Virus record (IMG/VR): IMGVR_UViG_3300037961_000543 | Span: 1-31,974 of that record | Origin: a virus | Strand: one strand, 5' to 3' | Length of the DNA: 31,974 nt | Shown: one piece after another, positions 11,093 to 31,973 of the stretch | Layout: each line of letters begins with the position of its first letter | How positions within the stretch are numbered: the stretch's first letter is position 1 | The notes under the pieces: model-generated | The model's database searches: none | Told to the model about the DNA's origin: nothing | The model's input: only the letters and a program-made list of their open reading frames with translations | Translations under genes and position numbers: made by a program

Positions 11093-12424
11093 ATGGTATC
11101 TACGTATACAACTAATGGTGGTATTGAGAAGATCGGTTCAGGCGAACAGTCTGGTACATGGGGGGATACCACAAATACAAACTTCGATATTATAGATAAA
11201 CTAACTAATGGTGTTATCGATATAACACTTTCAGGCACTACGCACACACTCACAACCAGCGATGGCGCAGTTTCTGATGGTATGTCAAAAGTCTTGGTTC
11301 TAGGAGGATCACCTTCAGGCACAAACACTATAACGATATCCCCAAATGATGCTCAAAAATTATACTTTGTTAAGAACGGTACGAGTCAAATAGCCACTTT
11401 CACTCAAGGGTCAGGTAGTGACGTTAGTGTAGCCGCAGGTGCAGGTGCGATCATTTTTGCTGACGGAGCGGGGTCAACAGCGGCAGTAACAGATTTAACC
11501 GCGTTGTTTCCTAATGTAAACACAGGTGGAGCAGGAGTTTTTACTACTGTAACAGCGAATGGCGGCTTGAAGGCAGATGACATAACGATTGATGGTACAG
11601 AGATAGACCTGAGTTCTGGCGATCTTACAGTGGATGTAGCAGGTGATATTGACTTAGACGCAGGTGGGGGAGATTTTAAATTTTCTGTCGGTGGTACAGA
11701 GATACTAAGAATTACTAACTCATCAAGTGACGTAATTATTAGACCTGTTGCCGATGCCAAAGATATAATATTTCAACAAAGAGATGGGACAGAAGTCGCT
11801 AGGATAGAAGACAATGGCACGTTTAACGTGGTTACAGACAAGTTTGCTATAAATGGCACGGCTGTAACGTCCACCGCTGCTGAGTTAAATATACTAGACA
11901 CCGCAACTGTAACCGCTGGGGAACTAAACCTGTTAGACGGAGACACATCAGTCGGTAGCTCCATAACCGTAGCAGACTCAGATGGCATAATTGTTAACGA
12001 TGGTGGAACAATGAAGACCATACCTGCCAGTGCTGTGAAAACATATACGACTGCAGGGGCTACAAGTGGGACTGTTACAAGTGTAGCTACAGGCAACGGC
12101 TTGACAGGTGGTACGATAACAAGTTCTGGTACGTTAGCCATGAAAAATAGTTGGATGTCCACTTCCTCTGCTGTTTTTTCAATCGGCAGCACGACAAGTT
12201 TTACAAACAGCAGGTCTTACCCCGTCTTTATAACGGGAAGAAGTGCAGCGGGTGGAGGTAGTTTTACATTTTCTGTTAACAATGGTAGCGGTGGGACTGG
12301 CACTATTGATATGGCAGATGGCGACAGTGGTACTAATGACCCATTTGTATTTATATTGCCTGTAGGGGGATCAATATCTGGTTCTACTTTTACAGGAGTA
12401 GGAATAGAACTAAGACCAGGTTGA
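11093..12424 (+). CDS. Tail fibre protein (443 aa)
   Basis: The N-terminal domain (STYTTNGGIEKIGSGEQSGT ... TNFDIIDKLTNGVIDITLSG, about 1-50) is a typical attachment module of marine phage fibres. Next come a beta domain (TITISPNDAQKLYFVKNGTS) and shaft blocks VAGDIDLDAGGGDFKFSVGG and KDIIFQQRDGTEVARIEDNG, related to fibres 1 and 2. Two copies of the AELNxLD motif follow (TAAELNILD and AGELNLLDG, about 262-283). The C-terminal tip is about 310-443 and ends FTGVGIELRPG. Role: host attachment. It is the last adhesin before the lysis genes. Confidence 0.85.
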   Translation: MVSTYTTNGGIEKIGSGEQSGTWGDTTNTNFDIIDKLTNGVIDITLSGTTHTLTTSDGAVSDGMSKVLVLGGSPSGTNTITISPNDAQKLYFVKNGTSQIATFTQGSGSDVSVAAGAGAIIFADGAGSTAAVTDLTALFPNVNTGGAGVFTTVTANGGLKADDITIDGTEIDLSSGDLTVDVAGDIDLDAGGGDFKFSVGGTEILRITNSSSDVIIRPVADAKDIIFQQRDGTEVARIEDNGTFNVVTDKFAINGTAVTSTAAELNILDTATVTAGELNLLDGDTSVGSSITVADSDGIIVNDGGTMKTIPASAVKTYTTAGATSGTVTSVATGNGLTGGTITSSGTLAMKNSWMSTSSAVFSIGSTTSFTNSRSYPVFITGRSAAGGGSFTFSVNNGSGGTGTIDMADGDSGTNDPFVFILPVGGSISGSTFTGVGIELRPG

Positions 12425-16869: not shown

Positions 16870-17345
16870 TGAAGCTGGTGGATAGTAAAGAACAGAAACT
16901 AAGCTATAACCAAGTGTTGTTCGGTGCTATAAATAACGCTAAAAGTTCAAGACAAATACCAGAGAATGTTACCATGCGGCAGGCTGTGGCTACAGTGCTT
17001 GAAGAAATAGGACGTAAAAACGTGCAAACTGTGCAAATAGGTAACACCATATTTTTAGGAGTATATAATAAAGAAAAAAATAACATGTACGTTAGGATAT
17101 ATAATATGGATGTAGGGCGTAACGTAATAGACAACATGTATAGATACGGAGCGCATCTGCAAAAAAAGGGCATACAACACATGAGCGCACAGATCAGAAG
17201 TGAAAGACTGTTACCTGCACTGCGGGTAATACAAAAACGACTAGAAAAGTTAGATACAAACTTAGAATTTGTAGATTTAGAGAATACAGATGGCTATGCT
17301 ATGTTTTTAAAATTTGGCAAGGAGCCGTTGATGGAGGCTGCGTAA
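16869..17345 (+). CDS. Conserved protein of unknown function ahead of the ejection genes (158 aa)
   Basis: The N-terminal part is helical (SYNQVLFGAINNAKSSRQIP, MRQAVATVLEEIG). A central two-strand unit follows (VQTVQIGNTIFLGVYNKEKN, MYVRIYNMDVGRNVID), then a helix-strand end in FVDLENTDGYAMFLKFGKEP. The last part has the feel of an acetyltransferase-like (GNAT) C-terminus, and podoviruses often carry such a small protein before the internal proteins. I see no clear acetyl-CoA loop, so this remains a guess. It is coupled to both neighbours by TAATG. Confidence 0.7.
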   Translation: MKLVDSKEQKLSYNQVLFGAINNAKSSRQIPENVTMRQAVATVLEEIGRKNVQTVQIGNTIFLGVYNKEKNNMYVRIYNMDVGRNVIDNMYRYGAHLQKKGIQHMSAQIRSERLLPALRVIQKRLEKLDTNLEFVDLENTDGYAMFLKFGKEPLMEAA

Positions 17346-20300
17346 TGGTAAATGCTGTAAAAGAGGTAGCTGATTTTGCAGGGGATGTCATACGTCCTGT
17401 GGCTGACGCTGCTGCTGACGTGTTACGTCCCGTGGGTGAAGCCATATTACGTAGTGATGAGGTAAAAACGGTTGTAAATGTAGCAGCGGTAGCAACAGGT
17501 AACTCGTGGGCTGTACCTATAATTAACGGTGCAGACGCTATAGATGAAGGAGCTGACCCTGAAGATGTACTAAAAACTATTGTTGTATCTACTGTAGCCG
17601 CAGGTGCAGCAGACGCTGTAGGAGAGGTAGCTGCGGAAGCTTTAACAGACACAGTCGGGTCTACTGTGGCTAACTTTGTGGCTGATACAGGTGTGAATGT
17701 AGTAACAAACGGTGGTGATATAGGGGCTGCTGTCTTCGATGCAGGATTAAAAGGCTCTAAAATAGTTTCTAATACAACGAACACCATAGTGGATTCTTTG
17801 GGTATAGATACTTCTACTGATTTAGGTAAATCATTAGATAAATCCCTAAAAACAGGTATATCGGCAGAGATTATGGGTGAAGATGGTGTAAAAGCTGCAT
17901 CTATAGCTGCCATATCAGACACAATTATTAACCCTGTGTTAGAAAAAGGAGACGAACTAACTCCTGAAGCTCTTGGAGACGTATCTAAACTTGTTTCTAC
18001 AGCGTTGGTTGCAGGTGCAAAGGGCGAGAATGTTTACGATGCCATAAATCAAGAGCTGGGCAACACAGCCACAGCTGACCTACGCGATCTTGTAAAGACA
18101 AAAGTTAAAGACTTCATAGACCCCGTAGAAGAACTGCCTATGGATACAGGAGAGTTCTTAACTGAAGCAGTGTTACCTGGCAAAGAAACACTAGATAAGT
18201 TTAGAGACACGAGCGTCACAGAGAAAGATTTACCCTATTCGCCACAAAACTTGTTATCCCCTGGGGTATTGTCAGATGAAATGAGACAGGAGTTGTTAAG
18301 AAACACAGGGATAGAATTAGGTAAGTCTTCTGACATAGCTAGACTTATAGCTGAATATGAGAAAAGAGTAGCTCCTACTGGCTCTTTATCTGAACAAGAA
18401 ATATTAGATGACCCAAAGAGATTTAAAGGACCTGTGGGAGCAGGTATAGGACCTGAAGTAACGGATGAAGATTATCAGAGTCAATTAGCAGGTATATTAG
18501 GAGAAGAAACTCCTAAAGTAAGTCAAGTTAGTAAAAGAATAATAGATGACGCAAAGAAAAACTTGGCGGGAGTCGGTTATAGTGTGTCTTCAGGAACTTT
18601 AGAGGCGATTGCTTTGCAAGTAGAAGGCACTGCAAATATTGGTGACGCTACTGTAAATAAATTTAGAGAGTTATTTGATAAAGATCCCACTAGATTTCTT
18701 AGAGATAAAACAGGTAAAGTGGTTGCTTGGTTAGACGGTGCAAGTGAAGACCAAAAAGAAAAAATTAGTGGAGATTTACTAAGAAGAAGACGTGATGCTT
18801 TACCTGCTGAAGGTATGGAATTTACCACAGCTCTCCCTGGAGGTGAAAAAGCGTTAGATATGAAAGGGAGACCTTATGGCACAGACAAGTTTGCCACATT
18901 TTTAAATGCTTCTGAAGAGTTTGGTGATGTATTTACAGATATGGCAGTTCTCTATCTGACTGGTCCCGTGTTAGGACCTGCAATAACTCTTTCTCTTGGT
19001 GTAGCGGAGGGACAAGCGGACTCATCACGAAGATTAGACCAAGAAATACAAAAAGCAATTGATGACGGGACGTTAGCAGAAAATGTGGGGTGGCAAACCA
19101 TGTTAGCTGATGCAAAAGGGGATACTTTTGAAGAGAAGTCAGAAAATGCCAAAGAAGCTTTAAAGAAACAATTTTTTAAATATACTGTAGCAGCAGGTGG
19201 CTTAGAAGCTGTTGGAGATTTGGTAACTGCAAAAGCAGCTCTTGGAACCTTAAACATAAAGACTATTGGTGACTTATATACCAAGTTAACTCCAAAACAA
19301 CGAAAAGCAATAGGGATACCCGTAAACATAACCGCAGCGACTGGGGTTGGTGGACTTACCGAGGCAGGTCAAACAGCAATAACTGAAAAAGCTCTAAGAG
19401 ATTTTGATATATATCCAAAAACAGAGGCAGGAGCATCGTTTCTTTTAGGTGCAGCAGGGCAAGGAGGAGCTGTTACAGTAGCTAACACCCTAGACGGCAT
19501 AAACAACGCACTAAAATCAAAATATGAAAAAGGCACGTTAAGCCTACAAGACAGAAATTACGTAGAAAATGAGATATTAGCTCCTGAAGGTGAGTTTGTA
19601 GGCACTCCAACCGCGCCAACCAGTGTGGCAGAAACAACACAAGTTGATACTATAAGTAAAGATATATCTCCTGCAGACAAAGAGGCTTGGATACGCACGA
19701 TAATAGGCGAAGCCGCAGGTGAGTCTGATGCAGGGCAGGCAGCAGTGGCGCACACTATACTAAACAGATATAAAGATGGTGGTTTTGGTAAGTCTTTACA
19801 AGATGTCGTGTATGCTGACAAACAGTTTTCTACATTTAACCCCTTAGATCAAGGTGGTAATTTGTTGCATAAAAAAAGTAAGAGTAGTCCTGAATATAAA
19901 AGAGCTGAGAAACTTGTAAATGACATATTAAATGGCAAGATTAAAGATCCTACAGAAGGAGCCACACACTATTGGAACCCTGATGTGGCTAATCCGTCTT
20001 GGGGGAACGAAATACTATCCCAACATAAGTCTGGCGGTAAAAAGATAGACAGTCATATATTTGGGGGTAACACAGGTGCAGTAGATACTGTAGATGTAGC
20101 AGAAGTTGCTGATAACATAGATAAAAAACCTACAACTCCCACAAAAAAATTTACCACCCCTACAGTTACTACGGACACGTTAGGCACAGGGCAGATAGAC
20201 GCTAAACCCACACCTGACATAGCAGCTGAAGTTGTAGCTGACATATTAAACAAACCAACAAACTTTGTCACTGATGCCGATATAGCAGCGGTCACAGATG

Positions 20301-20668
20301 TGGCAAATTTGGTTGACACAGCCACAGATACAGCCACAGACACCGCTATAGATACCGCTACAGACACGGCAACAGATGTTACTCCTTTTAATGTTCCCAT
20401 AAGTCCCACTCAGGGGATAGCACAACTTGCGGGTCTTCAACAAGTGCGGGTAGACCCTCCAGAGACCGCAGATATAGAGTATTTTTACGATTTTGAAGAT
20501 ATTTTTGCGACTCCCGAACAAAGAAGAATGTTGCGTACTCCATACGAAGATAGTATAAATAGAAGTATTGACGAAGATATGGAAGAACTTTTAGAACCTA
20601 GTCCAGTTAACAGAACAGGTGGAGATAGCACTGATAACTTACTCAAACTACTTAGGAACATCGGATAA
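17345..20668 (+). CDS. Large internal virion protein with SleB-type cell wall hydrolase domain (1107 aa)
   Basis: Residues 1-190 are Ala/Val-rich (VVSTVAAGAADAVGEVAAEA). A further hydrophobic stretch lies near 538-560 (MAVLYLTGPVLGPAITLSLG). Residues about 778-895 form a SleB/Hydrolase_2 domain: AWIRTIIGEAAGESDAGQAA with candidate catalytic Glu789, then VAHTILNRYKDGG, DKQFSTFN and THYWNPDVANPSWGNE. After it come a Thr/Pro linker, five DTAT units (991-1010), and an acidic, Arg-containing end. Podovirus internal proteins with lytic domains open a hole in peptidoglycan during DNA entry (T7 gp16 is the precedent). This one probably does the same, with a different hydrolase fold. It starts at TAATG and leads the ejection module. 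Confidence 0.85.
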   Translation: MVNAVKEVADFAGDVIRPVADAAADVLRPVGEAILRSDEVKTVVNVAAVATGNSWAVPIINGADAIDEGADPEDVLKTIVVSTVAAGAADAVGEVAAEALTDTVGSTVANFVADTGVNVVTNGGDIGAAVFDAGLKGSKIVSNTTNTIVDSLGIDTSTDLGKSLDKSLKTGISAEIMGEDGVKAASIAAISDTIINPVLEKGDELTPEALGDVSKLVSTALVAGAKGENVYDAINQELGNTATADLRDLVKTKVKDFIDPVEELPMDTGEFLTEAVLPGKETLDKFRDTSVTEKDLPYSPQNLLSPGVLSDEMRQELLRNTGIELGKSSDIARLIAEYEKRVAPTGSLSEQEILDDPKRFKGPVGAGIGPEVTDEDYQSQLAGILGEETPKVSQVSKRIIDDAKKNLAGVGYSVSSGTLEAIALQVEGTANIGDATVNKFRELFDKDPTRFLRDKTGKVVAWLDGASEDQKEKISGDLLRRRRDALPAEGMEFTTALPGGEKALDMKGRPYGTDKFATFLNASEEFGDVFTDMAVLYLTGPVLGPAITLSLGVAEGQADSSRRLDQEIQKAIDDGTLAENVGWQTMLADAKGDTFEEKSENAKEALKKQFFKYTVAAGGLEAVGDLVTAKAALGTLNIKTIGDLYTKLTPKQRKAIGIPVNITAATGVGGLTEAGQTAITEKALRDFDIYPKTEAGASFLLGAAGQGGAVTVANTLDGINNALKSKYEKGTLSLQDRNYVENEILAPEGEFVGTPTAPTSVAETTQVDTISKDISPADKEAWIRTIIGEAAGESDAGQAAVAHTILNRYKDGGFGKSLQDVVYADKQFSTFNPLDQGGNLLHKKSKSSPEYKRAEKLVNDILNGKIKDPTEGATHYWNPDVANPSWGNEILSQHKSGGKKIDSHIFGGNTGAVDTVDVAEVADNIDKKPTTPTKKFTTPTVTTDTLGTGQIDAKPTPDIAAEVVADILNKPTNFVTDADIAAVTDVANLVDTATDTATDTAIDTATDTATDVTPFNVPISPTQGIAQLAGLQQVRVDPPETADIEYFYDFEDIFATPEQRRMLRTPYEDSINRSIDEDMEELLEPSPVNRTGGDSTDNLLKLLRNIG
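20315..20374 (+). repeat. 12-nt tandem repeat encoding DTAT x5
   Basis: Five in-frame 12-nt units (GACACAGCCACA and variants) encode DTAT, DTAT, DTAI, DTAT, DTAT. Third positions vary while the protein unit is kept, so the repeat is maintained at the protein level rather than being a recent slippage product. Confidence 0.85.
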
Positions 20669-21501
20669 TGGCTAGCTGGTGGCAGAATCTCGGTGGTATT
20701 GGCGTACCTAAAAACCCCTCTAGCGGAGGTACACCCTATTCAAACCTTGGTACGCCTGATTTTGTTACTTCAACGGGTGGCACGTCTGCCCCAACACCAA
20801 GTAGGTTTGGCGTTCCTGATTTTGTTCAACAACCCATAGACTTTGTGCAACAATTTTTTCCGTCTCAAACAAGCACAAAATCAACCCCTTCTACTTCGGA
20901 CTATATAAATCTCGCTGCTATGGGTATAGGAGGGTTAGGCTCTTTAATTGCCCCTGGACTTTTTATGGGAGAACCCCCCGTTTCGGGTTATCAGGGCAGT
21001 ATACCCAGATACAGAGGCATACGATCACAAGTTCCTGGGACATTTGACCCCACAAGAAGACCTGGAAGTGGAGGACAAAGATATTTTACAGATATGCAAT
21101 TTGTTCCTGAAGCAGATAAAGAAGCCGCGATGGCAGCCGCTGCAACTGAAGCAAAAGGGTTACAGTCTGTTAATTTAGCTAACCCTGCTCAAGAGCGTAC
21201 AGCGACAACGTTTATGGCAGAGGGTGGTATTGCTACTGCTAAAAAACAAGGTATGTATTTAGATGGAGCTACAGATGGTATGGCAGATGAAATACCCGCT
21301 ATGATAGACGGGGAACAACCTGCTATGTTAAGTGATGGTGAGTTTGTAATCCCTGCGGATGTTGTTAGTCATTTAGGTAATGGTAACTCTGATGCGGGCG
21401 CGAAAACATTAGAAAACATGATGGATGAAGTGCGAATGGCAAGGACAGGGACTAAGAAACAAGCCCCCGAAATTGATCCAGAAGACTTTCTTCCAACGTA
21501 G
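20668..21501 (+). CDS. Virion protein with GMADEIPAMIDGEQPAMLSDGEF motif (277 aa)
   Basis: The N-terminal third is Pro/Gly/Ser/Thr-rich with a repeated short unit (LGTPDFV and FGVPDFV). A hydrophobic segment (INLAAMGIGGLGSLIAPGLF, about 75-97) follows. The C-terminal 80 residues hold TDGMADEIPAMIDGEQPAML and SDGEFVIPADVVSHLGNG, a motif that recurs in internal and tape-measure-like proteins of marine phages, ending in an acidic EIDPEDFLPT. Its function is undefined. Its place among ejection genes and its membrane-capable segment suggest an ejected protein. It is coupled to the preceding gene by TAATG. Confidence 0.75.
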   Translation: MASWWQNLGGIGVPKNPSSGGTPYSNLGTPDFVTSTGGTSAPTPSRFGVPDFVQQPIDFVQQFFPSQTSTKSTPSTSDYINLAAMGIGGLGSLIAPGLFMGEPPVSGYQGSIPRYRGIRSQVPGTFDPTRRPGSGGQRYFTDMQFVPEADKEAAMAAAATEAKGLQSVNLANPAQERTATTFMAEGGIATAKKQGMYLDGATDGMADEIPAMIDGEQPAMLSDGEFVIPADVVSHLGNGNSDAGAKTLENMMDEVRMARTGTKKQAPEIDPEDFLPT

Positions 21502-21510
21502 GAGAATATT

Positions 21511-22365
21511 ATGGCAAGTGCTGGACTATCAAGTATTGAATTAACTGAGCCAAACGTAGGTAATTTTACGGGTGTAGAGTCTAACTTGTCACCCTATGTA
21601 GGTCCATACGTAACAGAAATGTTAGGTAGAGGCGCAGGTATAGCTAGCGAGCCTTATCAGGCGTATATGGGTCCTCTTACTGCAGGTCCATCGGACTTAC
21701 AAACAAAAGCATTTGAGGGTATTGGTAGCATCAACATACCAACAAGCGATATGGGTACGTTTACCCCCCAAAGTTTTACAGGTGGTATAGCCACGCAGTA
21801 CATGAACCCATTTCTAGAAGCTGCCCTAGCACCGCAACTAGCTGAAGCAAGAAGACAATCAGAAATATCTGCTCTTGCTGATGCTTCTCGTTTAACCAAA
21901 GCAGGAGCTTTTGGAGGCGGTAGACAAGCCATAATAGATGCAGAAAGAGACAGAAATCTACAACAAAATTTAGCCGCTATCACAGGAAAAGGCTACACAG
22001 ACGCTTTTGACAGAGCTATGGGGCAGTTTAACGTAGAACAAGATAGAGCTAGAGGCGTACAAGAAGACATAAATAAGTTTGGGTTAGCTGCTCTAGCTAG
22101 ACAGGCTAATCTAGGCGCAGTGCAACGAGATATAGACGCTGAAGGTATAACAGCTGACAGACTTCAGTTTGAAGAAGAGCGGGACTTTCCATATAAGCAA
22201 GTGCAATATATGCAGTCGTTACTACAAGGACTACCACTAGCTACCAAGTCATATACATATGCACAACCTTCACCATTAAGCACCTTTGCAGCTGGGGCAG
22301 GTAATCTTGCGTCTCTAACAGATGCGTTTACTGATTACTACAAGAAAACGTTTGGAGAAGTCTGA
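21511..22365 (+). CDS. Internal/ejection virion protein, helical (284 aa)
   Basis: A low-structure N-terminus (SPYVGPYVTEMLGRGAGIAS) leads to TQYMNPFLEAALAPQLAEAR (96-115). A long helical part follows with GAFGGGRQAIIDAERDRNLQ (132-151) and NLAAITGKGYTDAFDRAMGQ. Proteins with this YMNPyl...GAfGGgRQA pattern are found in internal modules of many podoviruses infecting proteobacteria. The end is DAFTDYYKKTFGEV. AGGAG upstream marks the start, and TGATG couples it to the next gene. An ejection role is inferred from neighbours. Confidence 0.75.
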   Translation: MASAGLSSIELTEPNVGNFTGVESNLSPYVGPYVTEMLGRGAGIASEPYQAYMGPLTAGPSDLQTKAFEGIGSINIPTSDMGTFTPQSFTGGIATQYMNPFLEAALAPQLAEARRQSEISALADASRLTKAGAFGGGRQAIIDAERDRNLQQNLAAITGKGYTDAFDRAMGQFNVEQDRARGVQEDINKFGLAALARQANLGAVQRDIDAEGITADRLQFEEERDFPYKQVQYMQSLLQGLPLATKSYTYAQPSPLSTFAAGAGNLASLTDAFTDYYKKTFGEV

Positions 22366-23765
22366 TGAGCTTGATGGACATAAATAGAACTATGAACAAG
22401 AAAGCGGACGCTTTTAGTCTGTTACCCGAACAACAGCTCCAAGGCATGAATATGAGAGGTATGCAGTCGCTACAAAAGGGAGTAAGTCCTGATTTGGTGG
22501 AGCTACTAGCCGTACAAGATGCGATAAAAAGAAAAAATGACTCTAAAAATGCGCTAATGTTGGCGCAAGAAGAAGACCCTAATACTATAAAAAGTCAAAA
22601 AGCAAATGAATTAGTAGAACAAAGTCGGCAAGAGCTAGGACTACCCAGTCAACAAGAAAAAGCGATGGCTGTGGCACAGGTGTTGGCTAATAGGCAAAAA
22701 ACAGCAAATAAAAACCTACAACAAGTTATGAGTAAAGGACTAGGGGGCATGAAAAGACCCAATATGTCTGTTCCTATGGCTCAAGGTGGAGTTGTAGGGT
22801 ATCAAGAGGGTGGAGGCGTAAAAGATTTTCTATTTGGTGACGAGTATAGTGTTTTAGGTATGTCACCTGCAGAACTTGCGTCTCTAGGTCTTATACTTGT
22901 CCCTGGAGGTGGATTGGTAAGAGCAGGATTAGGAGCGTTAAAATTAGGCGCACCCGCTGCAAAAGGTCTAGCAGGTATGGCACAGAGAGGTATTAGATCA
23001 TTATATAGTAAACCAAAGTTTGATCCAAAAATGCAAGGACCCCTGCCAGCAGGAGCTAAATTTACCGATAGAGTGTTCTCTCCAGCTAGGACAGCTAGAA
23101 GCCTAGGTGTGGCAGGTCTTCTTGGTTCACAGATGTTGAAAGATGAAGAGCCAAAACCAAAGAAGGAAGAGCCTAAAAAAGAAGATAAAAAGCTAGATTT
23201 AGATAAAGATACTACACCACAAACAACCACAGTTCCTACTGTTGACAAGGGAGCAACAGAAAAAGAGAAGAATGATGCGTTTCAACGGCTTGTTAATATA
23301 GCTACAGCCCCAGGTGGTTTTAAGAATATGGCTAGAACAGACCTACGTAGATCACAATTACTACTACTAAACGACCAGAAAGACAGACAGCTTGATATAC
23401 AAGAGCAAACTGCTAAAGCGCAGCAAACCATAGCTGCAGTTACCAAAGATAGTGCTGCGTACAATAAGTTGTTAACACAAGCAGAGAAACTCCAGAAACA
23501 ACTAAAAGAGATTACTGATGAGGTTATGAACACACCTCTAGGACAGAAATACTCAATATTAGAGATGGAAGCGGCTGAAGATGAGTCTTTACAAGAGGAA
23601 CTAGAGGCGCATAGACAGCTTATAAGAGCTGCCATTGAAGAGCGAGCGCAGTCATTTAAGTCTGAAGATAATATAGGGTTGATAGCGCAGCTAAAAGCCA
23701 TACAGAACAGACTATATTCAGAGTCCACGGGGATAGATAGAACTAAAGCTCCTAAAATAGTATAG
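22365..23765 (+). CDS. Internal virion protein with membrane-capable segment and coiled coil (466 aa)
   Basis: Residues 1-130 are helical and polar (LLAVQDAIKRKNDSKNALML, AMAVAQVLANRQKTANKNLQ). A QGGVVGYQEGGGVKDFLFGD region precedes a hydrophobic Gly/Leu stretch at about 165-205 (LASLGLILVPGGGLVRAGLG). A Lys/Glu/Pro linker follows (KPKKEEPKKEDKKLD), then a long coiled-coil C-terminal half (AKAQQTIAAVTKDSAAYNKL, EAAEDESLQEELEAHRQLIR). The layout suits a protein packed in the head and threaded into the envelope, but no enzymatic motif is visible. Function is inferred from module membership. Confidence 0.75.
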   Translation: MSLMDINRTMNKKADAFSLLPEQQLQGMNMRGMQSLQKGVSPDLVELLAVQDAIKRKNDSKNALMLAQEEDPNTIKSQKANELVEQSRQELGLPSQQEKAMAVAQVLANRQKTANKNLQQVMSKGLGGMKRPNMSVPMAQGGVVGYQEGGGVKDFLFGDEYSVLGMSPAELASLGLILVPGGGLVRAGLGALKLGAPAAKGLAGMAQRGIRSLYSKPKFDPKMQGPLPAGAKFTDRVFSPARTARSLGVAGLLGSQMLKDEEPKPKKEEPKKEDKKLDLDKDTTPQTTTVPTVDKGATEKEKNDAFQRLVNIATAPGGFKNMARTDLRRSQLLLLNDQKDRQLDIQEQTAKAQQTIAAVTKDSAAYNKLLTQAEKLQKQLKEITDEVMNTPLGQKYSILEMEAAEDESLQEELEAHRQLIRAAIEERAQSFKSEDNIGLIAQLKAIQNRLYSESTGIDRTKAPKIV

Positions 23766-23773
23766 GAGAGGCA

Positions 23774-26700
23774 ATGCCTACTTACGAGATATACAAAAAA
23801 GACGGCACTCCGATAAGGGTAGAAGGCCCAGAGGGAGCAACCATTGACGATCTTATAGGTATACTTGCGTCAGGACAACCTGAAAGAGAAGAAGATACAC
23901 TAAGCCCCACACAAAGAGCTTTTGCTGCCATACGCGAGGCTAAAAGAAAGAGACCTGGAACTATAGCTGACCAAGCAGGTGAGGTAGTAAAAGGTCTTGG
24001 TAGTGGCATAGCAGGTATATTAGAAAGTGGTGCGTTAGGTGCTGCGGCTATCTTGCCTGAAGTTTTAGAAGACCCTGTGCGTAGAGGCATAAAATCTGTT
24101 GGGGAGGGAGTACAGGACTATCTTGCTCCTGATGCAAATATAGGGTATGGGGCATCAGCCGTGCCACGTAAGTTTGCAGAAGCCCTAGGATCTTTTGGTG
24201 GCATTCTTGGCACAGCCGCAATAAACCCCCTTGCAGCGGCAGGTCTAGCGGTTACAGCGGGTGCAGGTGAAGCCAGTGAGCGAGCCAGAGAATCAGAAGC
24301 CACAGAGGGTGAAAGAACAAAAGCCGCTGTGCTGGGGGCAGGAGTAGGGCTATCAGAGCTTATATCTCCTACAAGAATACTCAACAAGTTAAGAGGTGGC
24401 TTGGGTAAGACTGCTGCTGACGATATATACGATAAGGGAGGACGTATACTACAGGAAGCAGGTGTTGAGGGTCTGCAGGAATATGCAGCTGCGATAGGAC
24501 AAAATTTAATTGAACGTGGTATATACAACCCAGAACAAGGCACATTTGAGGGGTCTGGAGAAGCCTTTGGGTACGGTGCAGGTGTTGGTGGTTTTGTGCA
24601 AACTATCGTAGAAATGATTGCACCTAGAAGAGGAGCTAAAGCAGATGTTACAAAGACTGACGACGACGGAAGTGGAGAAGGCACTGAAGCTGATTTACGA
24701 GGCGAACGAGAAACAGGAAGACGTGTTGATCCCTCCAAATCTAAGAAAACTGGAACCACTAGAGTGGATTCTGCTAGAAAACTTGCTACAGATGATATTA
24801 CAAGAAAAAGAAAGAAAGACGCTACACTAACAGAAGACTTTAAAGCAGGTATACAAGACCCTGATGCTGATATGGACGCTTTAGAAATACAACAACAACA
24901 AAGCGTTTTACAAGAAAAAGGGTTTCCTAGATCAAGAATGGGACCAGATGTTACAGGAGTGCCAAAAAACATTGAAGCTGCTAATATAGATGAGGCTGCT
25001 GCTGCACTAGATGAGGAGTACGGAGGTGAGTTAGTCGAGGCTATAAAGAAGGTAAAAGAACGAGAAAAAGAAGGGCTAGATCGGCTTGGTAGAGGTGATA
25101 GAGAGTTTCTAAATATAACTCCAGCAGGTGAAATTTTCTTAAAAAGAGTGAACCGTGTAGATCAAACTCCTGACCAATACTATGCTAACTTATCAGAAAA
25201 GATTGACCCTGAAACAGAGTTAATACTTAAAAGTAATGAAATACCTGTTTCTGACGGTATGACAATAGGAGATGCTAGAGATAAATTATCTGAAAAAGCA
25301 GGTAAAGATGTTGTTAAGATACCTCCTAAGTTTTTAAGAGGGTTTCAACCTAAAGAGACGAAAGAGGCAAATGAAAAAGCAGAGTCTGTATACAAGAAGA
25401 ATCTAGAAACAAAATATTACCTTGAGGCAGGGCAAAAACCTAGAGATTTAGAACAGTTTAATCTTTCAAAAAGAACTTCTTCGTTAGATATGGATGATCT
25501 ACCCTTGCAAGATAAAAACAAGATAATAGCTTTGATAGAGTCAAAACCTCCACGAGAAAGAGGAAAGTTTGAAGGAGATCCTAAAGAAGATCTAGACGCA
25601 GATTACCCTAATATGGATTTTCTTGTAGCTCAAACTCTTAGTAAAGACCCTAGTATAGAAAACGCTTTAGATGAAGCAGCTTATCAGATGCGGTTTCCTG
25701 AAAGAGAAGCGGAAATACCTGACAATGCTACACCTTTACAAAAATTGAAAGCCATAGAAAAAGCTAAAACTAAAGAGATAAAAAAGTTTAAAGCAAAACC
25801 AAGAGCAATAATAAATCCTGATGTAGCTCCATTTAATCGTGCCGTAGACGGAGATTATGACACTTACATAGAAAAGTTAGTGAAAAGAGAGGAAGCAGGG
25901 GAGAAAATATTTATGTACGGCAAAGAGCAAGATGTTGGAGGAGTTTACTATAAGGGGATGAGAAAAAAGATTGGGCCTTCTACCCCAAAAGCAAAGGATG
26001 CGTATTTCTTAGATAATACAGGGCAGGAAGCTGCGTTAAGAGTAGCGGTTTGGGTAGATAATAACTTGTCCCCAGAAGGAAAGGCTTGGTTTAACAACAG
26101 AGTAGAGTTTTACAGTAAAGACAAACCCATAGGTACTAAAGCACAACAAAACATAGTTAGAACAACAAAACCTGCAGAAGTTGAAAAAGAAGCCGAGAAA
26201 GACAGAGAACAGAGTAAAAAAGATGAAAAACTTTTTAAGAAGCAAGTGGTGGACCCCACAACAGGAAAGCGGTTTGATGAAGACCTAGTAGGAGACCTTG
26301 GTTTTTACAGCATAAAACAAAATAGAATAATACCTATTACAGACAAACAAAGGCAGTTTAATAAAAAAGAAAAAGAAACAATAAGAAAAGATTTAGCTGA
26401 CCTTTTAGGCATGTCCTATCTTGACATGAAAAGGTATGACCGCTACGCACCTGGAGTTGACCCTATAGGTACTGAAGAAAAAAAACAAAAGGCTTGGAAG
26501 AAGTCGGTTCAGGAAGCAAAAAAATATTTAGAAAACACACTTAATCTTGTACCAACTTTTTCTGATACTAGACCATCACTTGACTTGTTAACAACCACTA
26601 GCTTAACAAAACCAGCCTACACCAAAAACGATCTAAAAGATGTGGCAAAAGACCTGTACTACTTCAGATATAAAGCAGAATACGTGGGTACAGGTAGAGG

Positions 26701-29700
26701 GTCAGCAGAAGCAGAAACAATTAAGAAAAGAAAAGAGTTGGAGAAGTTTGGGGCTAAAGCTGTTGAACGTAAGAAAGAGGAACGTTTTTTAAAACAAAGA
26801 AAAAAGAAAACAGCGTTAACATCTGAAGAAGCTGTAGCTATAGCCATGAAATATGCTCGTGAGAACGGCATGCTAATAAGAAAAGAGGTAGACGCTAGAA
26901 AAGGGGAGGAACTTCTACTGCCAATAAAGGCTGTTATGGACCTTGAATATTCATTATCTACCATAGCTGTAGATCATTTAGCTAACAATAGACTATTTGA
27001 AGCTTTAAAAGTATTAGCCTTAGATACTGATAACAGAATAGTAGCCCAAGTTGCTAACAAGTTTGCTGACTTAGTAGGCACAACTGAAGTTGTTATCGTA
27101 AAGAATTTAAAGGTTGGTAGAAGAAAAGCAGCAGGGTTGTTTGACCCTAAAACTAACACTATAAAATTAGACGCAGAATCTGGTATGACACCTCACGTGT
27201 TACTGCACGAGATGGGACACGCCTTGGCTTCTGCAGAACTAGCCAACCCGTCAAGTGCGTTTGCTAATCAGATAAAAACTATATTTGACCAAGTAAAAGA
27301 CAGGTTAGGCACAGCATATGGCACAAAGAATGTAGACGAGTTTGTATCTGAAATATTAAGTAATCATCTTTTCCAACAAGAACTAAGTCGTATAAATATA
27401 CAAGGGGAAAAGATAACAGCTATGCAAAGAATTAGAAACTTCTTTGGCAATCTGTGGAGACGTTTAACCAAGCAACCCAGGGTAAACATAGATGCCCTCT
27501 CTATAACAAGTGATATTATAGACAGTTTACTAGCTCCTGCGCCAAAGTATCGTGATGCGGGTACGTACTTTATGAGTCCATCAGACATGAAAAAAAGTTT
27601 TAATTCTTTCTTAAACGGTCCTCAGAAACGTAAAAAGTTTATGAACAATCAGGAACAAGACACGTTTATAGACCGTGCTGTTGAAACTCTAGCTAGAGGA
27701 GGGGTAACTAATTTTGCAAAAGACTTGTTTATGGGGGTAAGTGACCTGTTAACGGCAACTACCATAGCAGACAGAGCAGGGTTTAATGGTTTGGGCAATA
27801 AACTAAACATACTTGTGCAGAAACAAAGAGGTGGTTTGGAACGAGCAGGACAGGAGTTTGACGAAGTCGTACAAAAACTAAAACCTTATATGACAAGTCC
27901 TAACTCAGATAAAGCTGTGCTTGATGACGTGATATACAGCTTAAAATACGGAGCCACCATATATCAAGTAGACCCGTTGAAGAGAGAAAAAGATTATATT
28001 GATAAAGATGGTAACGACATCTTAGATCAGAGTGGTAACAATCTGCGAGAAAAATGGAAAGAAAATCAAAAAGTATGGAGAAAGTTAAGCCCTGCAGGTA
28101 AACAGGCGTATAAAGACATGCTTAACTACTATAAGAAAGAGTATGGTAAGTTAAAGAAGTCAATAGAAACAGAACTTAGTCGTTCGATGGATAAAAAGCA
28201 GGTTGACGCTATGAAGAAAGGTCCACTTGCCAAGATATTTAACCCAAGAAATTTAGACGTATATTTTCCTCTCATACGTGAAGGAGACTACGTAGTAACA
28301 TATCAACTTAAAACACCAGAAAAAGATGGTGATCCAAGAGTCACACTTCTAACAAAAACGCAAACCGCTGCTGATAATCTTGCCCGAAAGCTAGACGCGG
28401 ATGATACGGTGGTTGCGAACTCTGTACGTGTATACAGCCAACAAGATGCCACTTCTGACTTTGTTAACTCACCACCGACTGGGTTTGTAGGAGATATACT
28501 TACAGCTATAAACGAAGGCAAACTACCCGCAGAAGAGAAGAAAGCTGTAAAAGATGAGATTGTAAAGCTGTATATAAACACGTTACCAGAAACATCATTT
28601 GCTAAATCACTCACCGCCAGAAAAGGTGTTGTAGGTTTTGACCCTGACTCTTTTGCAGCATTTAAAGATAAGGGTTTTAGTCTTGCTCGTCAGGTTGTGC
28701 AGTTAGAAAAAGGCAGAGAACTTAGAAATATAGAGAACGACATACGTGCAGTTATAAAAAAGTCCAAAGACGAAAAAGCTTACCAAAACAACTCTTTCTT
28801 AAGAGACTTAGGTATAGGATACCCAAGTGTGAAAAGGATAGGTGATGATCTTCTAAAAAGATCTAAGTTTGCAAGACAAGGTCCTGACTATAAAGGGGTA
28901 GAGAAGATAGCAAAAACAGCAAACCAGACAGCGTTTCTTTACACCATTGGTTTTAACATATCGTCAGCACTTGTTAACTTGTCTCAGATACCCTTATTTG
29001 TGTACCCCTATTTCGGTGCAGAGTATGGGTATGGTAGGACATACGGTACGATAATGGAAGCTGCGAAGATTGTTGGTAACGGTAAAGTTGATATAACATC
29101 TTACTACGACATCAAAGACGGAGAGTACACCGTTAGAGATAAGATAGGTAACAGGCAACTTCGTGAAGGAGAGAAGTTGAAAATGAAGGCGTTTGCCCCT
29201 CTCATAAAAGAGGCAGATGAAAGAGGGCAGCTCACGCGGTCTTGGATACTAGATGCCCTAGGACTAGGAGAGACAGGACGAGATACGCGAGGAGACTACA
29301 ACATGATAGATAAGGTGGCAGGATTTTCTGCAGCCATGTTTAACTTTGCGGAACGTGCTAACCGTCAAGCAACACTTCTAGCTTCTTATGAGTTAGCCCT
29401 CAGAAAGTCTGTAGACCCAAATAACACTATGTTCAAAGAGGGTGAGTACTCTTTTAGTAAGCTAGCCGATGCAGCCACTGACAAGCAAGTACAAGATGCT
29501 GTAGAGCTGGCACTTCGTAAAACACAAGAAACTAACGGAGGTACGGTGTTGGAGACGGCTCCACGTATAGCACAGCAGAATATTGGTCGTGTGGCTATGA
29601 TGTATAAAAGTTACGGGATACGTATGTATACAACCATGATACAGTCTGTGCGAGAGCTTATAAGAAGAGACAAAGATCTAACTGATCCTGACAGGATAAT

Positions 29701-30565
29701 AGCTTTGAAACAGTTGGCAGGTATACATTTAAGTGCATTGTTCTTTGCAGGTATACAAGGTCTTCCTTTGTATGGGGCTATAACTATGATATGGGATTTG
29801 TTTCTAGATGATGAAGAAGACGACGCAGACACCATTGTAAGAAAAACAGTTGGAGAAGAATGGTACAAAGGGGCTGTAAACCTTATTACAGGTATGGATA
29901 TCGCATCCAGAACTCGTCTCACAGGGTTGTTGATACAAGAAAATCGTTATAACAAAGACGCTTCATTCGAGGAAAACTTACTGTTCTATCTGGGAGGTCC
30001 TGCGTTAAGCACAGTTGACAGACTATTACGAGCCACCAACGACTTTAAAGAAGGTAACTTCGAAAGAGGCGTAGAAAATGCTTTACCTGCCGCATTGGCT
30101 AACGCATGGAAAGCAGGTCCGTTTGGTAGAACAACCAGAGAAGGTTATCTTACACGTAGAGGCGATGCCATATACGGAGATCCTACTTTCGGAGACCTAC
30201 TTGGTCAGTTCGCAGGGTTCCCTCCCGTAGAGTACACACGGCAAATGGAAAAGAACAACATCAAAAAAGGTATAGACACATCTATAAATCGAAAGAAGAC
30301 GCAACTAACAAAGAAACTTTATGTAAGTATGCGTCAAGGTAATTTAGAATTGTACGAGGAAGCATATAAAGAGTTGATAGCCCACAACAAACGACACCCT
30401 CTATCTACCATAACAGGTGAGGACATAATGAGATCTATGAAACGACATAGAGAGACATCTAAAGATATACGTATGAATAATGGTATAAACATATCTTCAG
30501 CAAATAGGATGCTCTTATTGATGAATGAGAGCGAGTACGACAAAGACTATAGATTTTTTGGGTAA
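23774..30565 (+). CDS. Giant internal virion protein with HExxH metallopeptidase motif (2263 aa)
   Basis: The N-terminal domain MPTYEIYKKDGTPIRVEGPE with GATIDDLIGILASG (1-35) heads large proteins in several marine phages. Residues about 60-200 contain hydrophobic, Gly/Ala-rich helices (GSGIAGILESGALGAAAILP). The middle is charged and helical. HEMGH at 1145-1149, followed by candidate third ligands E1189 or E1193 in VDEFVSEIL, indicates a zinc peptidase domain. The C-terminal third includes TAFLYTIGFNISSALVNLSQ (membrane-capable) and the ERANRQATLLASYELALRKS block common to such proteins. Multi-domain ejected proteins of this size are known from marine podoviruses and overlap with 'polyvalent' proteins. 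Entry with DNA and cleavage of a host or phage target are inferred. It is the last rightward gene. Confidence 0.85.
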   Translation: MPTYEIYKKDGTPIRVEGPEGATIDDLIGILASGQPEREEDTLSPTQRAFAAIREAKRKRPGTIADQAGEVVKGLGSGIAGILESGALGAAAILPEVLEDPVRRGIKSVGEGVQDYLAPDANIGYGASAVPRKFAEALGSFGGILGTAAINPLAAAGLAVTAGAGEASERARESEATEGERTKAAVLGAGVGLSELISPTRILNKLRGGLGKTAADDIYDKGGRILQEAGVEGLQEYAAAIGQNLIERGIYNPEQGTFEGSGEAFGYGAGVGGFVQTIVEMIAPRRGAKADVTKTDDDGSGEGTEADLRGERETGRRVDPSKSKKTGTTRVDSARKLATDDITRKRKKDATLTEDFKAGIQDPDADMDALEIQQQQSVLQEKGFPRSRMGPDVTGVPKNIEAANIDEAAAALDEEYGGELVEAIKKVKEREKEGLDRLGRGDREFLNITPAGEIFLKRVNRVDQTPDQYYANLSEKIDPETELILKSNEIPVSDGMTIGDARDKLSEKAGKDVVKIPPKFLRGFQPKETKEANEKAESVYKKNLETKYYLEAGQKPRDLEQFNLSKRTSSLDMDDLPLQDKNKIIALIESKPPRERGKFEGDPKEDLDADYPNMDFLVAQTLSKDPSIENALDEAAYQMRFPEREAEIPDNATPLQKLKAIEKAKTKEIKKFKAKPRAIINPDVAPFNRAVDGDYDTYIEKLVKREEAGEKIFMYGKEQDVGGVYYKGMRKKIGPSTPKAKDAYFLDNTGQEAALRVAVWVDNNLSPEGKAWFNNRVEFYSKDKPIGTKAQQNIVRTTKPAEVEKEAEKDREQSKKDEKLFKKQVVDPTTGKRFDEDLVGDLGFYSIKQNRIIPITDKQRQFNKKEKETIRKDLADLLGMSYLDMKRYDRYAPGVDPIGTEEKKQKAWKKSVQEAKKYLENTLNLVPTFSDTRPSLDLLTTTSLTKPAYTKNDLKDVAKDLYYFRYKAEYVGTGRGSAEAETIKKRKELEKFGAKAVERKKEERFLKQRKKKTALTSEEAVAIAMKYARENGMLIRKEVDARKGEELLLPIKAVMDLEYSLSTIAVDHLANNRLFEALKVLALDTDNRIVAQVANKFADLVGTTEVVIVKNLKVGRRKAAGLFDPKTNTIKLDAESGMTPHVLLHEMGHALASAELANPSSAFANQIKTIFDQVKDRLGTAYGTKNVDEFVSEILSNHLFQQELSRINIQGEKITAMQRIRNFFGNLWRRLTKQPRVNIDALSITSDIIDSLLAPAPKYRDAGTYFMSPSDMKKSFNSFLNGPQKRKKFMNNQEQDTFIDRAVETLARGGVTNFAKDLFMGVSDLLTATTIADRAGFNGLGNKLNILVQKQRGGLERAGQEFDEVVQKLKPYMTSPNSDKAVLDDVIYSLKYGATIYQVDPLKREKDYIDKDGNDILDQSGNNLREKWKENQKVWRKLSPAGKQAYKDMLNYYKKEYGKLKKSIETELSRSMDKKQVDAMKKGPLAKIFNPRNLDVYFPLIREGDYVVTYQLKTPEKDGDPRVTLLTKTQTAADNLARKLDADDTVVANSVRVYSQQDATSDFVNSPPTGFVGDILTAINEGKLPAEEKKAVKDEIVKLYINTLPETSFAKSLTARKGVVGFDPDSFAAFKDKGFSLARQVVQLEKGRELRNIENDIRAVIKKSKDEKAYQNNSFLRDLGIGYPSVKRIGDDLLKRSKFARQGPDYKGVEKIAKTANQTAFLYTIGFNISSALVNLSQIPLFVYPYFGAEYGYGRTYGTIMEAAKIVGNGKVDITSYYDIKDGEYTVRDKIGNRQLREGEKLKMKAFAPLIKEADERGQLTRSWILDALGLGETGRDTRGDYNMIDKVAGFSAAMFNFAERANRQATLLASYELALRKSVDPNNTMFKEGEYSFSKLADAATDKQVQDAVELALRKTQETNGGTVLETAPRIAQQNIGRVAMMYKSYGIRMYTTMIQSVRELIRRDKDLTDPDRIIALKQLAGIHLSALFFAGIQGLPLYGAITMIWDLFLDDEEDDADTIVRKTVGEEWYKGAVNLITGMDIASRTRLTGLLIQENRYNKDASFEENLLFYLGGPALSTVDRLLRATNDFKEGNFERGVENALPAALANAWKAGPFGRTTREGYLTRRGDAIYGDPTFGDLLGQFAGFPPVEYTRQMEKNNIKKGIDTSINRKKTQLTKKLYVSMRQGNLELYEEAYKELIAHNKRHPLSTITGEDIMRSMKRHRETSKDIRMNNGINISSANRMLLLMNESEYDKDYRFFG

Positions 30566-30637: not shown

Positions 30638-30871
30638 TCACAAAATTCTCCAAATGCGAACACCTAATTTATTATCTTCTACACGCACATGCGTTTTTAT
30701 GTCCCAACCTTTTGTTTTTGCTATATTTTTTATTTGTTGTATAGCCGCCTGGGTATTGATACATAGGATAAATACAGAAGAACTTGTTACCATATTATCC
30801 CAATCTACTATAATTCTCACACCATCTGGGTTCAAATCATCAGACTTCAATATGCCTTGTCTTATTCTCAT
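30638..30871 (-). CDS. Small conserved replication-module protein (77 aa)
   Basis: The protein starts MRIRQGILKSDDLNPDGVRI and continues with IVDWDNMVTSSSVFILCINT, a helix (AAIQQIKNIAKTKGWDI) and an ending with KLGVRIWRIL. This MRIRQGxLKSDDLxPDGVRI pattern is one I recognise from small genes beside phage replication ATPases in marine phages. The alternating strands and single helix suggest a compact alpha/beta fold. Its start lies 32 nt inside the end of the upstream ATPase gene, so it is co-translated with it, and the two hairpins end the transcript. Function is unknown. Confidence 0.75.
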   Translation of the reverse strand: MRIRQGILKSDDLNPDGVRIIVDWDNMVTSSSVFILCINTQAAIQQIKNIAKTKGWDIKTHVRVEDNKLGVRIWRIL

Positions 30872-31973
30872 TCTCTATAGAGCAGTCTACAGCTATAACT
30901 CTCGTTACAGGCAGGTTCATGTGTGTGCCTTTGCTTAGACGCATGGTGGTGTTTGTTGCACCCAGTTTAGTTTTAAGGTCCTGCATGAAAGATGTATAGT
31001 CTATCTGCTGTTGTCCACACCATGCTTTCAAAGGTTTTGGTATCAGATAGGCACGTTTTAGATCAGTTTCATAACGTGCAACTAATTTACCTCTTGGTAA
31101 CGCTTCAGGTATGACAATATTAGTAACACCATCTTCTTGCTTACGTAGGTCATCAGTGCTTTTTATCCATAACACGTTGCTCCAATGTTCGTGTATGTAA
31201 TCATTAAGTGTTTCTTCTACAGATACACTCATGTCTGATACCTCGTTCTTGCTCTCTTTCAAACGATCTATCGCCCACTTAAACACTTTCTTTGGATCAT
31301 AATCCACAAGCCCCAACCGATTTGCCAGTATAACACCTGTCATACTAGCCGCTACCAGAGCAGACCAAAATCTATTCTCTGCTTTTAACCCTGCTTGAAT
31401 ATCCACTCTGACCTGTACCTTCTGTAGAAGCTTCTGCACCTCTTCCAAATGGTTGATAATGTATTTTATGTATATCCTACCTGCATGCCCGTGGTTACGC
31501 TGTAGCTGTAAGTTAAACTTGTCTGTTTCTTCTTTTGAACCAAACTTCATATTTGGAACACGTATCTCCATAAGTCTCTGCGCTTCAGCTTTTGGCATGG
31601 CTTTGGCTGTGCTTATCTTTTCTATCAAACTACGGTTTGCACTTGTGACTGCTATAAGTTTCCAAGGCTTACCCCGCTTTCGTTCTACGTTTCCACCTTG
31701 AGACATTCTGTTTCTTTGTTTACCGCTTGTAAGCTGATACACAAGGTCAGACAATTCTCTAGCCGAAGCGTTCGTAAGTTCGTCCATATATAATGGTAGA
31801 CTGTGATATAGCTCTCCTCTGTTCATCATAGAGTTATGCGTGTCCTTCTCAAATATTAACAAGTCAGCGTGATTACCCCATACAGACAAAGCTGTGTTCA
31901 TAGCCGTAGTCTTACCAACTCCTGACCCACCATTTAGATGTAATCCTGCACAGTTTATTGGTAAAAGAGACAT
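30840..31973 (-). CDS. DUF927-type P-loop ATPase/helicase, N-terminus cut by the window edge
   Basis: The visible 377 residues include a Walker A motif GGSGVGKT (15-22) after CAGLHLNG, a Walker B-like LPLYMDE (59-65), and an IAVTSAN sensor-like strand (107-113). Together with VWGNH and the later helical domain they fit DUF927 proteins, which accompany phage and plasmid replication primases and helicases. Family members are usually longer, and the frame is open to the right edge, so the Met shown is probably internal and the start lies outside. Likely role: ATP-driven helicase or loader in phage DNA replication; activity is inferred. Its 3' end overlaps the small gene at 30638. Confidence 0.8.
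   Translation of the reverse strand: MSLLPINCAGLHLNGGSGVGKTTAMNTALSVWGNHADLLIFEKDTHNSMMNRGELYHSLPLYMDELTNASARELSDLVYQLTSGKQRNRMSQGGNVERKRGKPWKLIAVTSANRSLIEKISTAKAMPKAEAQRLMEIRVPNMKFGSKEETDKFNLQLQRNHGHAGRIYIKYIINHLEEVQKLLQKVQVRVDIQAGLKAENRFWSALVAASMTGVILANRLGLVDYDPKKVFKWAIDRLKESKNEVSDMSVSVEETLNDYIHEHWSNVLWIKSTDDLRKQEDGVTNIVIPEALPRGKLVARYETDLKRAYLIPKPLKAWCGQQQIDYTSFMQDLKTKLGATNTTMRLSKGTHMNLPVTRVIAVDCSIENENKTRHIEV

What the first reader, a model, noticed from the sequence alone, without database searches (positions are those of the whole stretch)
23774..30565. 2263-aa ejection-type protein with a buried HEMGH metallopeptidase
One gene fills a fifth of the window. It combines a short N-terminal conserved domain, membrane-capable helices, a zinc-peptidase motif at 1145-1149 and a conserved C-terminal third. 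The target of the peptidase is unknown. It could process virion proteins, cut itself on entry, or inactivate a host defence factor, as proposed for multi-domain polyvalent proteins of phages and conjugative elements.
Basis: partly seen in the sequence, partly recalled or inferred. Interest (0 to 1): 0.55.

Follow-up and report, generated by a model that had tools for sequence, protein, structure and literature searches.

The report
Phage ejection protein carrying a peptidase
This is a very large protein of a marine virus of bacteria that is probably packed in the virus head and shot into the cell with the DNA; it carries a protein-cutting enzyme that its own family has kept intact, and related domains sit in ejected proteins of well-studied phages.

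Summary
In detail: 23774-30565 (+) encodes 2263 aa with one HExxH motif, HEMGH at 1145-1149. The motif is real. Among relatives found through C-terminal patterns alone, 60 of 60 testable proteins keep HExxH 1076-1151 aa from their C-end. In a dereplicated set of 33, both histidines and the catalytic Glu are invariant and the presumed third ligand, E1189, is kept in 32. AlphaFold2 (pLDDT 81) gives a zincin core. Its best structural matches are the C1 domain of phage N4's ejected RNA polymerase (Z 9.1) and the tetrameric ejection protein of phage PhiM1 (Z 9.6); anthrax lethal factor's protease domain follows (Z about 5). The C-terminal 900 aa are the LPD39/PLxRFG module of polyvalent proteins, and also resemble podovirus internal core proteins. 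The gene ends a conserved ejection-type cassette. I read it as a PhiM1-TEP-like ejection protein with a latent metallopeptidase that acts after delivery, most likely cutting its own linkers. The substrate is unproven. By-product: PhiM1's published "endolysin-like" domain is better read as this zincin. In the wider PLxRFG superfamily most proteins (54 of 80) lack a zincin at this place.

The parts
23774..30565 (+). gene of the 2263-aa ejection-type protein
23774..24598 (+). residues 1-275: N-terminal conserved domain (beta hairpin with the MPTYEIYKKDGTPIRVEGPEGAT start, then a Gly/Ala-rich helical bundle)
   Evidence: pLDDT mostly 75-94; phmmer matches to 37-69 of 111 relatives' N-parts over roughly 1-300
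24602..26962 (+). residues 277-1063: variable, mostly low-confidence linker region; 3 of 45 N-parts scanned carry an ADP-ribosyltransferase domain (none in this protein)
26963..27466 (+). residues 1064-1231: zincin metallopeptidase domain
   Evidence: AlphaFold2 model, VIA-align matches to 9pnt C1, 8vb2 and anthrax lethal factor, profile matches
27206..27220 (+). HEMGH (1145-1149), presumed zinc ligands H1145 and H1149, general base E1146
27338..27340 (+). E1189, presumed third zinc ligand (EF motif on the second helix)
   Evidence: E in 32 of 33 dereplicated unbiased rows, D in one; the E of EF is also kept in 5 of 5 PhiM1-type proteins, whereas E1193 is replaced by Q there
27848..28204 (+). 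LPD39 domain, residues 1359-1477
   Evidence: PF18858, E 5e-7
28259..30562 (+). residues 1496-2263: tail-700/PLxRFG module, mostly helical C-terminal body
   Evidence: NF032893, 280.5 bits, model
22365..23765 (+). 466-aa gene directly upstream, variable (similar gene in 10 loci), possible ejection protein
21511..22365 (+). 284-aa gene, weak match to a PHROG of DNA ejection proteins, upstream in 62 relative loci
20668..21501 (+). 277-aa gene, upstream in 41 relative loci
17345..20668 (+). 1107-aa protein with a Hydrolase_2 (cell wall hydrolase) domain at residues 792-906, a possible source of wall-opening activity
30840..31973 (-). convergent DNA primase/helicase-like gene; similar gene downstream on the opposite strand in 133 relative loci

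Best explanation
The protein is the large ejection protein of a marine podovirus, comparable to the tetrameric ejection protein of PhiM1, to podovirus internal virion protein D and, in layout, to N4 vRNAP without the polymerase. It has three parts: an N-terminal helical domain that probably contacts the envelope, a flexible variable middle that in some relatives carries an effector, and a C-terminal body of zincin plus helical LPD39/PLxRFG module. It is probably packed folded and uncut in the head core, unfolds to pass the narrow tail, and refolds in the cell. The metallopeptidase would then become active only on arrival, so that passage through the tail acts as its timer. Its most likely first substrate is its own flexible linkers on either side of the zincin, which frees the N-terminal part or payload from the body. 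Shown here: gene, motif, conservation, predicted fold, family links and gene order. Inferred: packaging, ejection, zinc binding, activity, timing and substrate.
For: HExxH in 60 of 60 testable relatives found without using the motif, with 15 different middle pairs. H1141, H1145, E1146, H1149, G1183, F1190 and E1193 in 33 of 33 dereplicated unbiased rows, E1189 in 32. Zincin core in a model with pLDDT 81.1, pTM 0.70. VIA-align Z 9.1, rmsd 4.2 A over 175 residues to N4 gp50 2124-2368, and Z 9.6 to PhiM1 TEP 289-864. Profile-profile P 2.8e-12 to PhiM1-type proteins and 3.2e-15 to N4-type C1; reversed controls 0.19 and 0.05. Foldseek matches to podovirus internal core proteins, E 1.3e-10 (phage Ab05), 5.5e-8 (RSB3) and 3.9e-7 (internal virion protein D of CRP-5). 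HExxH-to-C-end distance sd 21 aa in the unbiased set against 152 aa for the N-part: the zincin belongs to the C-terminal body. Low-confidence linkers on both sides of it (model 195-246; 1034-1063). Gene order. In N4 the vRNAP is packaged unprocessed and its MPTase region is needed for encapsidation (PMC5512222, section 8 read).
Against: No virion or activity data. Foldseek found no PDB match at E<=0.001, and the PhiM1 alignment has rmsd 15 A over 274 residues, so beyond the zincin it is loose. N4's C2 and this C-terminal body are not detectably homologous by profile (P 0.036; reversed controls 0.043-0.057). Most of the wider PLxRFG superfamily lacks a zincin here (54 of 80 loci), so the delivery module can do without it. 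No cleavage site was identified. The PDB sequence-profile matches are weak (E 9e-4 and 0.004; best single stretches 0.053 and 0.036).
Confidence: 0.5

Rival explanations
1. The peptidase is an effector: after ejection it cuts a host protein (defence factor, envelope or periplasmic protein), and self-cleavage is incidental or absent.
For: Catalytic residues strictly kept; nearest cellular fold match is anthrax lethal factor, a protease acting on host proteins (its action is recalled knowledge); relatives and a crAss-type giant carry an ADP-ribosyltransferase upstream of the zincin, so effectors do travel in such proteins. Proposed as one option in PMC5512222 (section 8 read).
Against: Fixed position in the C-terminal body rather than in the variable part where payloads sit; spread over phages of very different hosts, which suits a shared internal task better than one host target.
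Confidence: 0.27
2. The peptidase processes this or neighbouring proteins during head assembly, as proposed for P1 DdrB.
For: P1 DdrB is cut before packaging and has a C-terminal MPTase (PMC5512222, section 8 read).
Against: N4 vRNAP, with the same zincin family, is packaged as an unprocessed protein (PMC5512222), and no degradation was seen in N4 (passage of PMC12633501). The PhiM1 virion chain aligns to the model across the zincin and beyond (289-864).
Confidence: 0.15
3. The domain is no longer a peptidase: a structural zinc site, a relic, or another HExxH enzyme.
For: The N4 preprint notes that HExxH also occurs in other enzymes (PMC12633501, section 6 read). No activity has been reported for any member in the passages read.
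Against: The general-base Glu is invariant in 33 of 33, more than a structural metal site needs; the predicted fold agrees with the zincin definition in PMC5512222.
Confidence: 0.1
4. The domain opens the cell wall, as the published 'endolysin/exotransglycosidase-like' label of the PhiM1 counterpart suggests.
For: PMC11440229 (section 7 and part 1 of section 9 read) gives this label to TEP 268-528, and many phage records call the protein 'internal virion protein with endolysin domain'.
Against: Pfam finds no glycosidase in PhiM1 TEP or in this protein; the same stretch holds HEAAH and matches the zincin profile. This phage has a separate cell wall hydrolase domain in the 1107-aa protein.
Confidence: 0.05

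Closest known systems
Polyvalent proteins of phages (Iyer et al. 2017, PMC5512222) with MPTase, LPD39 and the NF032893 'PLxRFG' tail-700 domain
   Same: zincin metallopeptidase, LPD39, tail-700 score far above cut-off, place next to virion genes; ART-PolyVal in 3 of 45 N-parts scanned
   Different: no methylase or helicase as in the DarB-like members; 2263 aa, where 8 of the 12 relatives other than the Itty13 fragment run from 3000 to 4400 aa or more; zincin in constant position; the motif itself reads PLIREG
PhiM1 tetrameric ejection protein (PDB 8vb2, PhiM1_43, 1263 aa)
   Same: zincin with HExxH and EF motif, part of the following helical body (Z 9.6), gene after other core proteins
   Different: about half the length; loose superposition; published as endolysin-like
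N4 virion RNA polymerase gp50 (PDB 9pnt)
   Same: N-terminal domain, flexible linkers, zincin C1, about 1100-aa helical C-terminal part; HExxH 1273 aa from the C-end
   Different: no RNA polymerase domain found here; C2 homology not shown
Internal virion/core proteins of T7-like podoviruses (RSB3, Ab05, Drael01)
   Same: predicted fold (RSB3, Ab05), zincin in the Drael01 protein
   Different: 1250-1340 aa; T7 gp16 itself carries a lytic transglycosylase (PMC11440229, introduction passage)

Membership tests
Zincin-like metallopeptidase (as defined in PMC5512222) | three-stranded sheet, N-terminal helix, HEXXH helix, second helix with Glu | tested here: met
   model elements: helix 25-36, strands 42-46, 58-61, 66-70, helix 77-94 with HExxH at 82-86, helix 124-133 with E126 (add 1063 for protein numbers)
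Zincin-like metallopeptidase (as defined in PMC5512222) | zinc binding and proteolysis | not testable with these tools
   needs purified protein
Polyvalent protein | several disparate domains in one chain | tested here: met
   zincin, LPD39, tail-700
Polyvalent protein | encoded beside late/virion genes | tested here: met
Polyvalent protein | transferred into the host with DNA | not testable with these tools
   inferred only
NF032893 tail-700 | score above curated cut-off | tested here: met
   280.5 bits against 100
NF032893 tail-700 | the literal PLxRFG string (gives the family its name; the score is NCBI's criterion, so this row is not used to exclude it) | tested here: not met
   PLIREG in this protein (alignment A1)
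LPD39 (PF18858) | score above gathering threshold | tested here: met
   30 against 27 bits
Podovirus tetrameric ejection protein / internal virion protein D | fold of the zincin-plus-helical body | tested here: inconclusive
   8vb2 Z 9.6 but rmsd 15 A, 274 of 1200 residues; BFVD core proteins E 1e-10 to 4e-7 with TMq 0.23-0.38
Podovirus tetrameric ejection protein / internal virion protein D | tetramer in the virion core | not testable with these tools
   needs virions
N4-type virion RNA polymerase | single-subunit RNA polymerase domain | tested here: not met
   no polymerase among Pfam or PHROG matches; middle region mostly low confidence
DarB-like antirestriction protein | DNA methylase and helicase domains | tested here: not met
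   none found in this protein, present in Parlo

The most novel reading that the evidence does not exclude
A zinc metallopeptidase is a widespread built-in part of the podovirus DNA-ejection machine, shared by N4-, PhiM1/Drael01-, crAss- and marine PLxRFG-type phages. It is carried silent in the head, passes the tail unfolded and is switched on by refolding in the host, where it takes the ejected machinery apart (or cuts the envelope or defence proteins around it).
Probability: 0.3. Interest if true: 0.75.

Novelty: new variant of a known kind. Interest (0 to 1): 0.5.

Why it matters
Zincin domains of polyvalent proteins have been predicted since 2017 (PMC5512222) and I found no known substrate in what I read. 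Linking this one by fold and profile to the solved ejection proteins of N4 and PhiM1 moves the question to laboratory phages in which a single active-site change can be tested. It also suggests that a published functional label (endolysin-like domain of PhiM1's ejection protein, seen in many records) should be revised.

Tried and rejected
Homology of N4's C2 domain with this C-terminal body looked plausible by eye and aligned in one register, but the profile score did not beat reversed controls; not claimed. Sequence searches of PDB with single proteins gave nothing or only chance matches, and profile A1 gave only chance matches. Foldseek against PDB gave nothing at E<=0.001; T7 gp16 was not among the rows shown of the VIA list, which shows nothing. 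A scan of bacterial and archaeal genomes found no relative; the patterns chosen there were few, so this does not prove absence of prophages. No near relative among phage isolates by DNA. tRNA and composition scans added nothing. Paper searches for a metallopeptidase in podovirus ejection proteins: searches found none; one search gave the N4 preprint; one search gave the N4 preprint and PMC8472413, which report the N4-type zincin; one search was too broad to be useful; one search found none. None showed a statement for PhiM1-type proteins; only open-licence papers were searched. The N-part model (mean pLDDT 60.9) was not used for a fold search because most of it is low confidence.

Rows left out: A6 has 75 of the 77 sequences prepared (L145 and L160 omitted); 41 of its relatives were found through the motif itself, so conservation is quoted from the 33 others. 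A7 has 45 of 46 prepared (L212 omitted); 20 of 80 loci were not testable (under 1300 aa). The 60 testable include near-identical copies and the same contigs fetched twice; the dereplicated figure is 33 of 33. Itty13 (630-aa fragment) was left out of the 9-of-12 count.
Full report
The finding is correct as an observation. The reading frame 23774-30565 (+) gives 2263 aa without a stop. HEMGH is at 1145-1149, the only HExxH of the protein, where composition predicts 0.003. The window is a 31974-base virus record of IMG/VR; the stretch 8001-31974 has no near relative among 50,697 phage records by DNA.

What the parts are. Pfam finds LPD39 at 1359-1477, just above its gathering score. NCBIfam's tail-700 'PLxRFG' model matches from 1496 on with 280.5 bits against a cut-off of 100, although the naming string reads PLIREG here. 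By tblastn the C-terminal part matches giant proteins, mostly of 3000-4400 aa, in phages such as Parlo, LASTA, PEp14 and douglas 12A4, several annotated as DarB-like antirestriction proteins. Parlo's carries helicase and methylase domains; none were found in this protein. A separate region around the motif matches an internal virion protein of Pseudomonas phage Drael01 and a giant protein of the crAss-type phage cr116.

Is the motif kept? In 12 proteins with the stretch (this one included), 9 have an HExxH 1066-1235 aa from the C-end. In 80 loci of the wider PLxRFG superfamily (of 210 found) only 26 do at 900-1450 aa, in 12 of 28 clusters, with several different motif types. So the zincin next to this module is a recurring option and not a rule there. 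In the protein's own family the picture is sharp. A scan with the zincin motif found 207 relatives in viral contigs. To avoid circularity a second scan used only C-terminal patterns; it found at least 485 relatives, of which 80 were kept. Of these, 60 were long enough to test and all 60 have HExxH 1076-1151 aa from the C-end, with 15 different residue pairs between the fixed ones. After dereplication, 33 of 33 keep H1141, H1145, E1146, H1149, G1183, F1190 and E1193, and 32 keep E1189.

Fold. AlphaFold2 on residues 1064-2263 with 75 sequences gave pLDDT 81.1 and pTM 0.70. The first 170 residues show an N-terminal helix, three strands, the HExxH helix and a second helix with E1189, which is how PMC5512222 (section 8 read) defines the zincin-like peptidases of polyvalent proteins. 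Foldseek found nothing in PDB at E<=0.001. The VIA-align re-ranking put two phage ejection proteins on top: PhiM1's tetrameric ejection protein 8vb2 (Z 9.6; 274 residues; rmsd 15 A, so loose) and N4 vRNAP 9pnt (Z 9.1; 175 residues; rmsd 4.2 A) over its C1 domain, followed among peptidases by anthrax lethal factor (Z 4.4-5.2). Against predicted viral structures, 96 matches had E<=0.001; besides polyvalent proteins they include internal core proteins of phages Ab05 and RSB3 and internal virion protein D of CRP-5.

Family links of the zincin. A profile of this family finds the domain in TM29, cr116, Drael01, Parlo (its first HExxH) and PLxRFG loci L082 and L098. Profile-profile comparison gives P 3.2e-15 for nine N4-type C1 domains and P 2.8e-12 for five PhiM1-type proteins, with reversed controls at 0.052 and 0.19. 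All nine N4-type proteins examined (of 451 records found) have HExxH 1064-1313 aa from the C-end, and all five PhiM1-type proteins examined have it (of 57 records found). PMC11440229 (abstract, section 7 and part 1 of section 9 read) calls residues 268-528 of the PhiM1 protein endolysin/exotransglycosidase-like; Pfam finds no such domain, and residues 385-389 within it are HEAAH. I read it as the zincin. The E1193 position is Q in PhiM1-type proteins while the Glu of EF is kept, so E1189 is the likelier zinc ligand.

Layout. The distance from HExxH to the C-end varies little (mean 1120, sd 21, n 64) while the N-part varies much (mean 1041, sd 152, n 37). Residues 1-300 match 37-69 of 111 relatives' N-parts, 320-1060 fewer. 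The N-part model is confident mostly to residue 275 and poor beyond. Pfam on 45 N-parts found ART-PolyVal in 3 and nothing in this one. This is the order described for N4 vRNAP (PMC12633501, section 6 read): N-terminal domain, linker, payload, C1, helical C2. Homology of C2 with the C-terminal body could not be shown.

Neighbourhood. The two genes of 277 and 284 aa lie upstream in 41 and 62 relative loci, the convergent primase-like gene downstream in 133. The 284-aa protein has a weak match to a DNA ejection PHROG (E 0.0047). The 1107-aa protein further upstream has a cell wall hydrolase domain, so wall opening need not be the giant's task.

Mechanism. I commit to a core ejection protein with a peptidase that is silent in the virion and active after delivery, most likely on its own flexible linkers, because the zincin is fixed to the body and flanked by low-confidence linkers, and because its N4 relative is packaged unprocessed (PMC5512222). 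Packaging, ejection, zinc, activity and substrate are inferred. A host target is the main rival.

Novelty. The kind (zincin-bearing polyvalent proteins, with N4 included) is known from PMC5512222, and the N4-type zincin also from PMC8472413 (passages read). New here, as far as the searches named under Tried and rejected show, are the large family in viral contigs with constant zincin-PLxRFG layout, the fold and profile link to PhiM1-type ejection proteins, and the proposed correction of the PhiM1 domain label. That the phage is marine is inferred from the recalled nature of such contigs and was not looked up.

Noticed in passing
L267:12198-15989 (PhiM1_43): The domain published as endolysin-like holds HEAAH and an EF motif and matches the zincin profile; records of related phages carry the label 'internal virion protein with endolysin domain' over the same stretch.
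   Followed up: yes
L009:6340-17634 (Serratia phage Parlo): One giant protein has two HExxH sites of different type, one like this family at 1195 and one of another type (HEAFH) at 2557 before the LPD39/PLxRFG module.
   Followed up: partly
L008:6477-14000 (crAss-type phage cr116_1): Giant protein with an ADP-ribosyltransferase domain and three HExxH motifs, the first of this zincin family.
   Followed up: partly
window 4432-5856 and 11093-12424: Two genes both match PHROG 31104, perhaps duplicated tail or fibre-related genes.
   Followed up: no
window 4-570: First ORF matches a PHROG labelled ferredoxin, E 2e-17.
   Followed up: no
window 17345-20668: 1107-aa protein with a Hydrolase_2 cell wall hydrolase domain at residues 792-906 in front of the ejection-type genes.
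   Followed up: partly
window 27194-27196 (H1141): A histidine four residues before HExxH is invariant in 33 of 33 unbiased relatives but is not seen at that place in the PhiM1-type or N4 sequences shown; role unknown.
   Followed up: no
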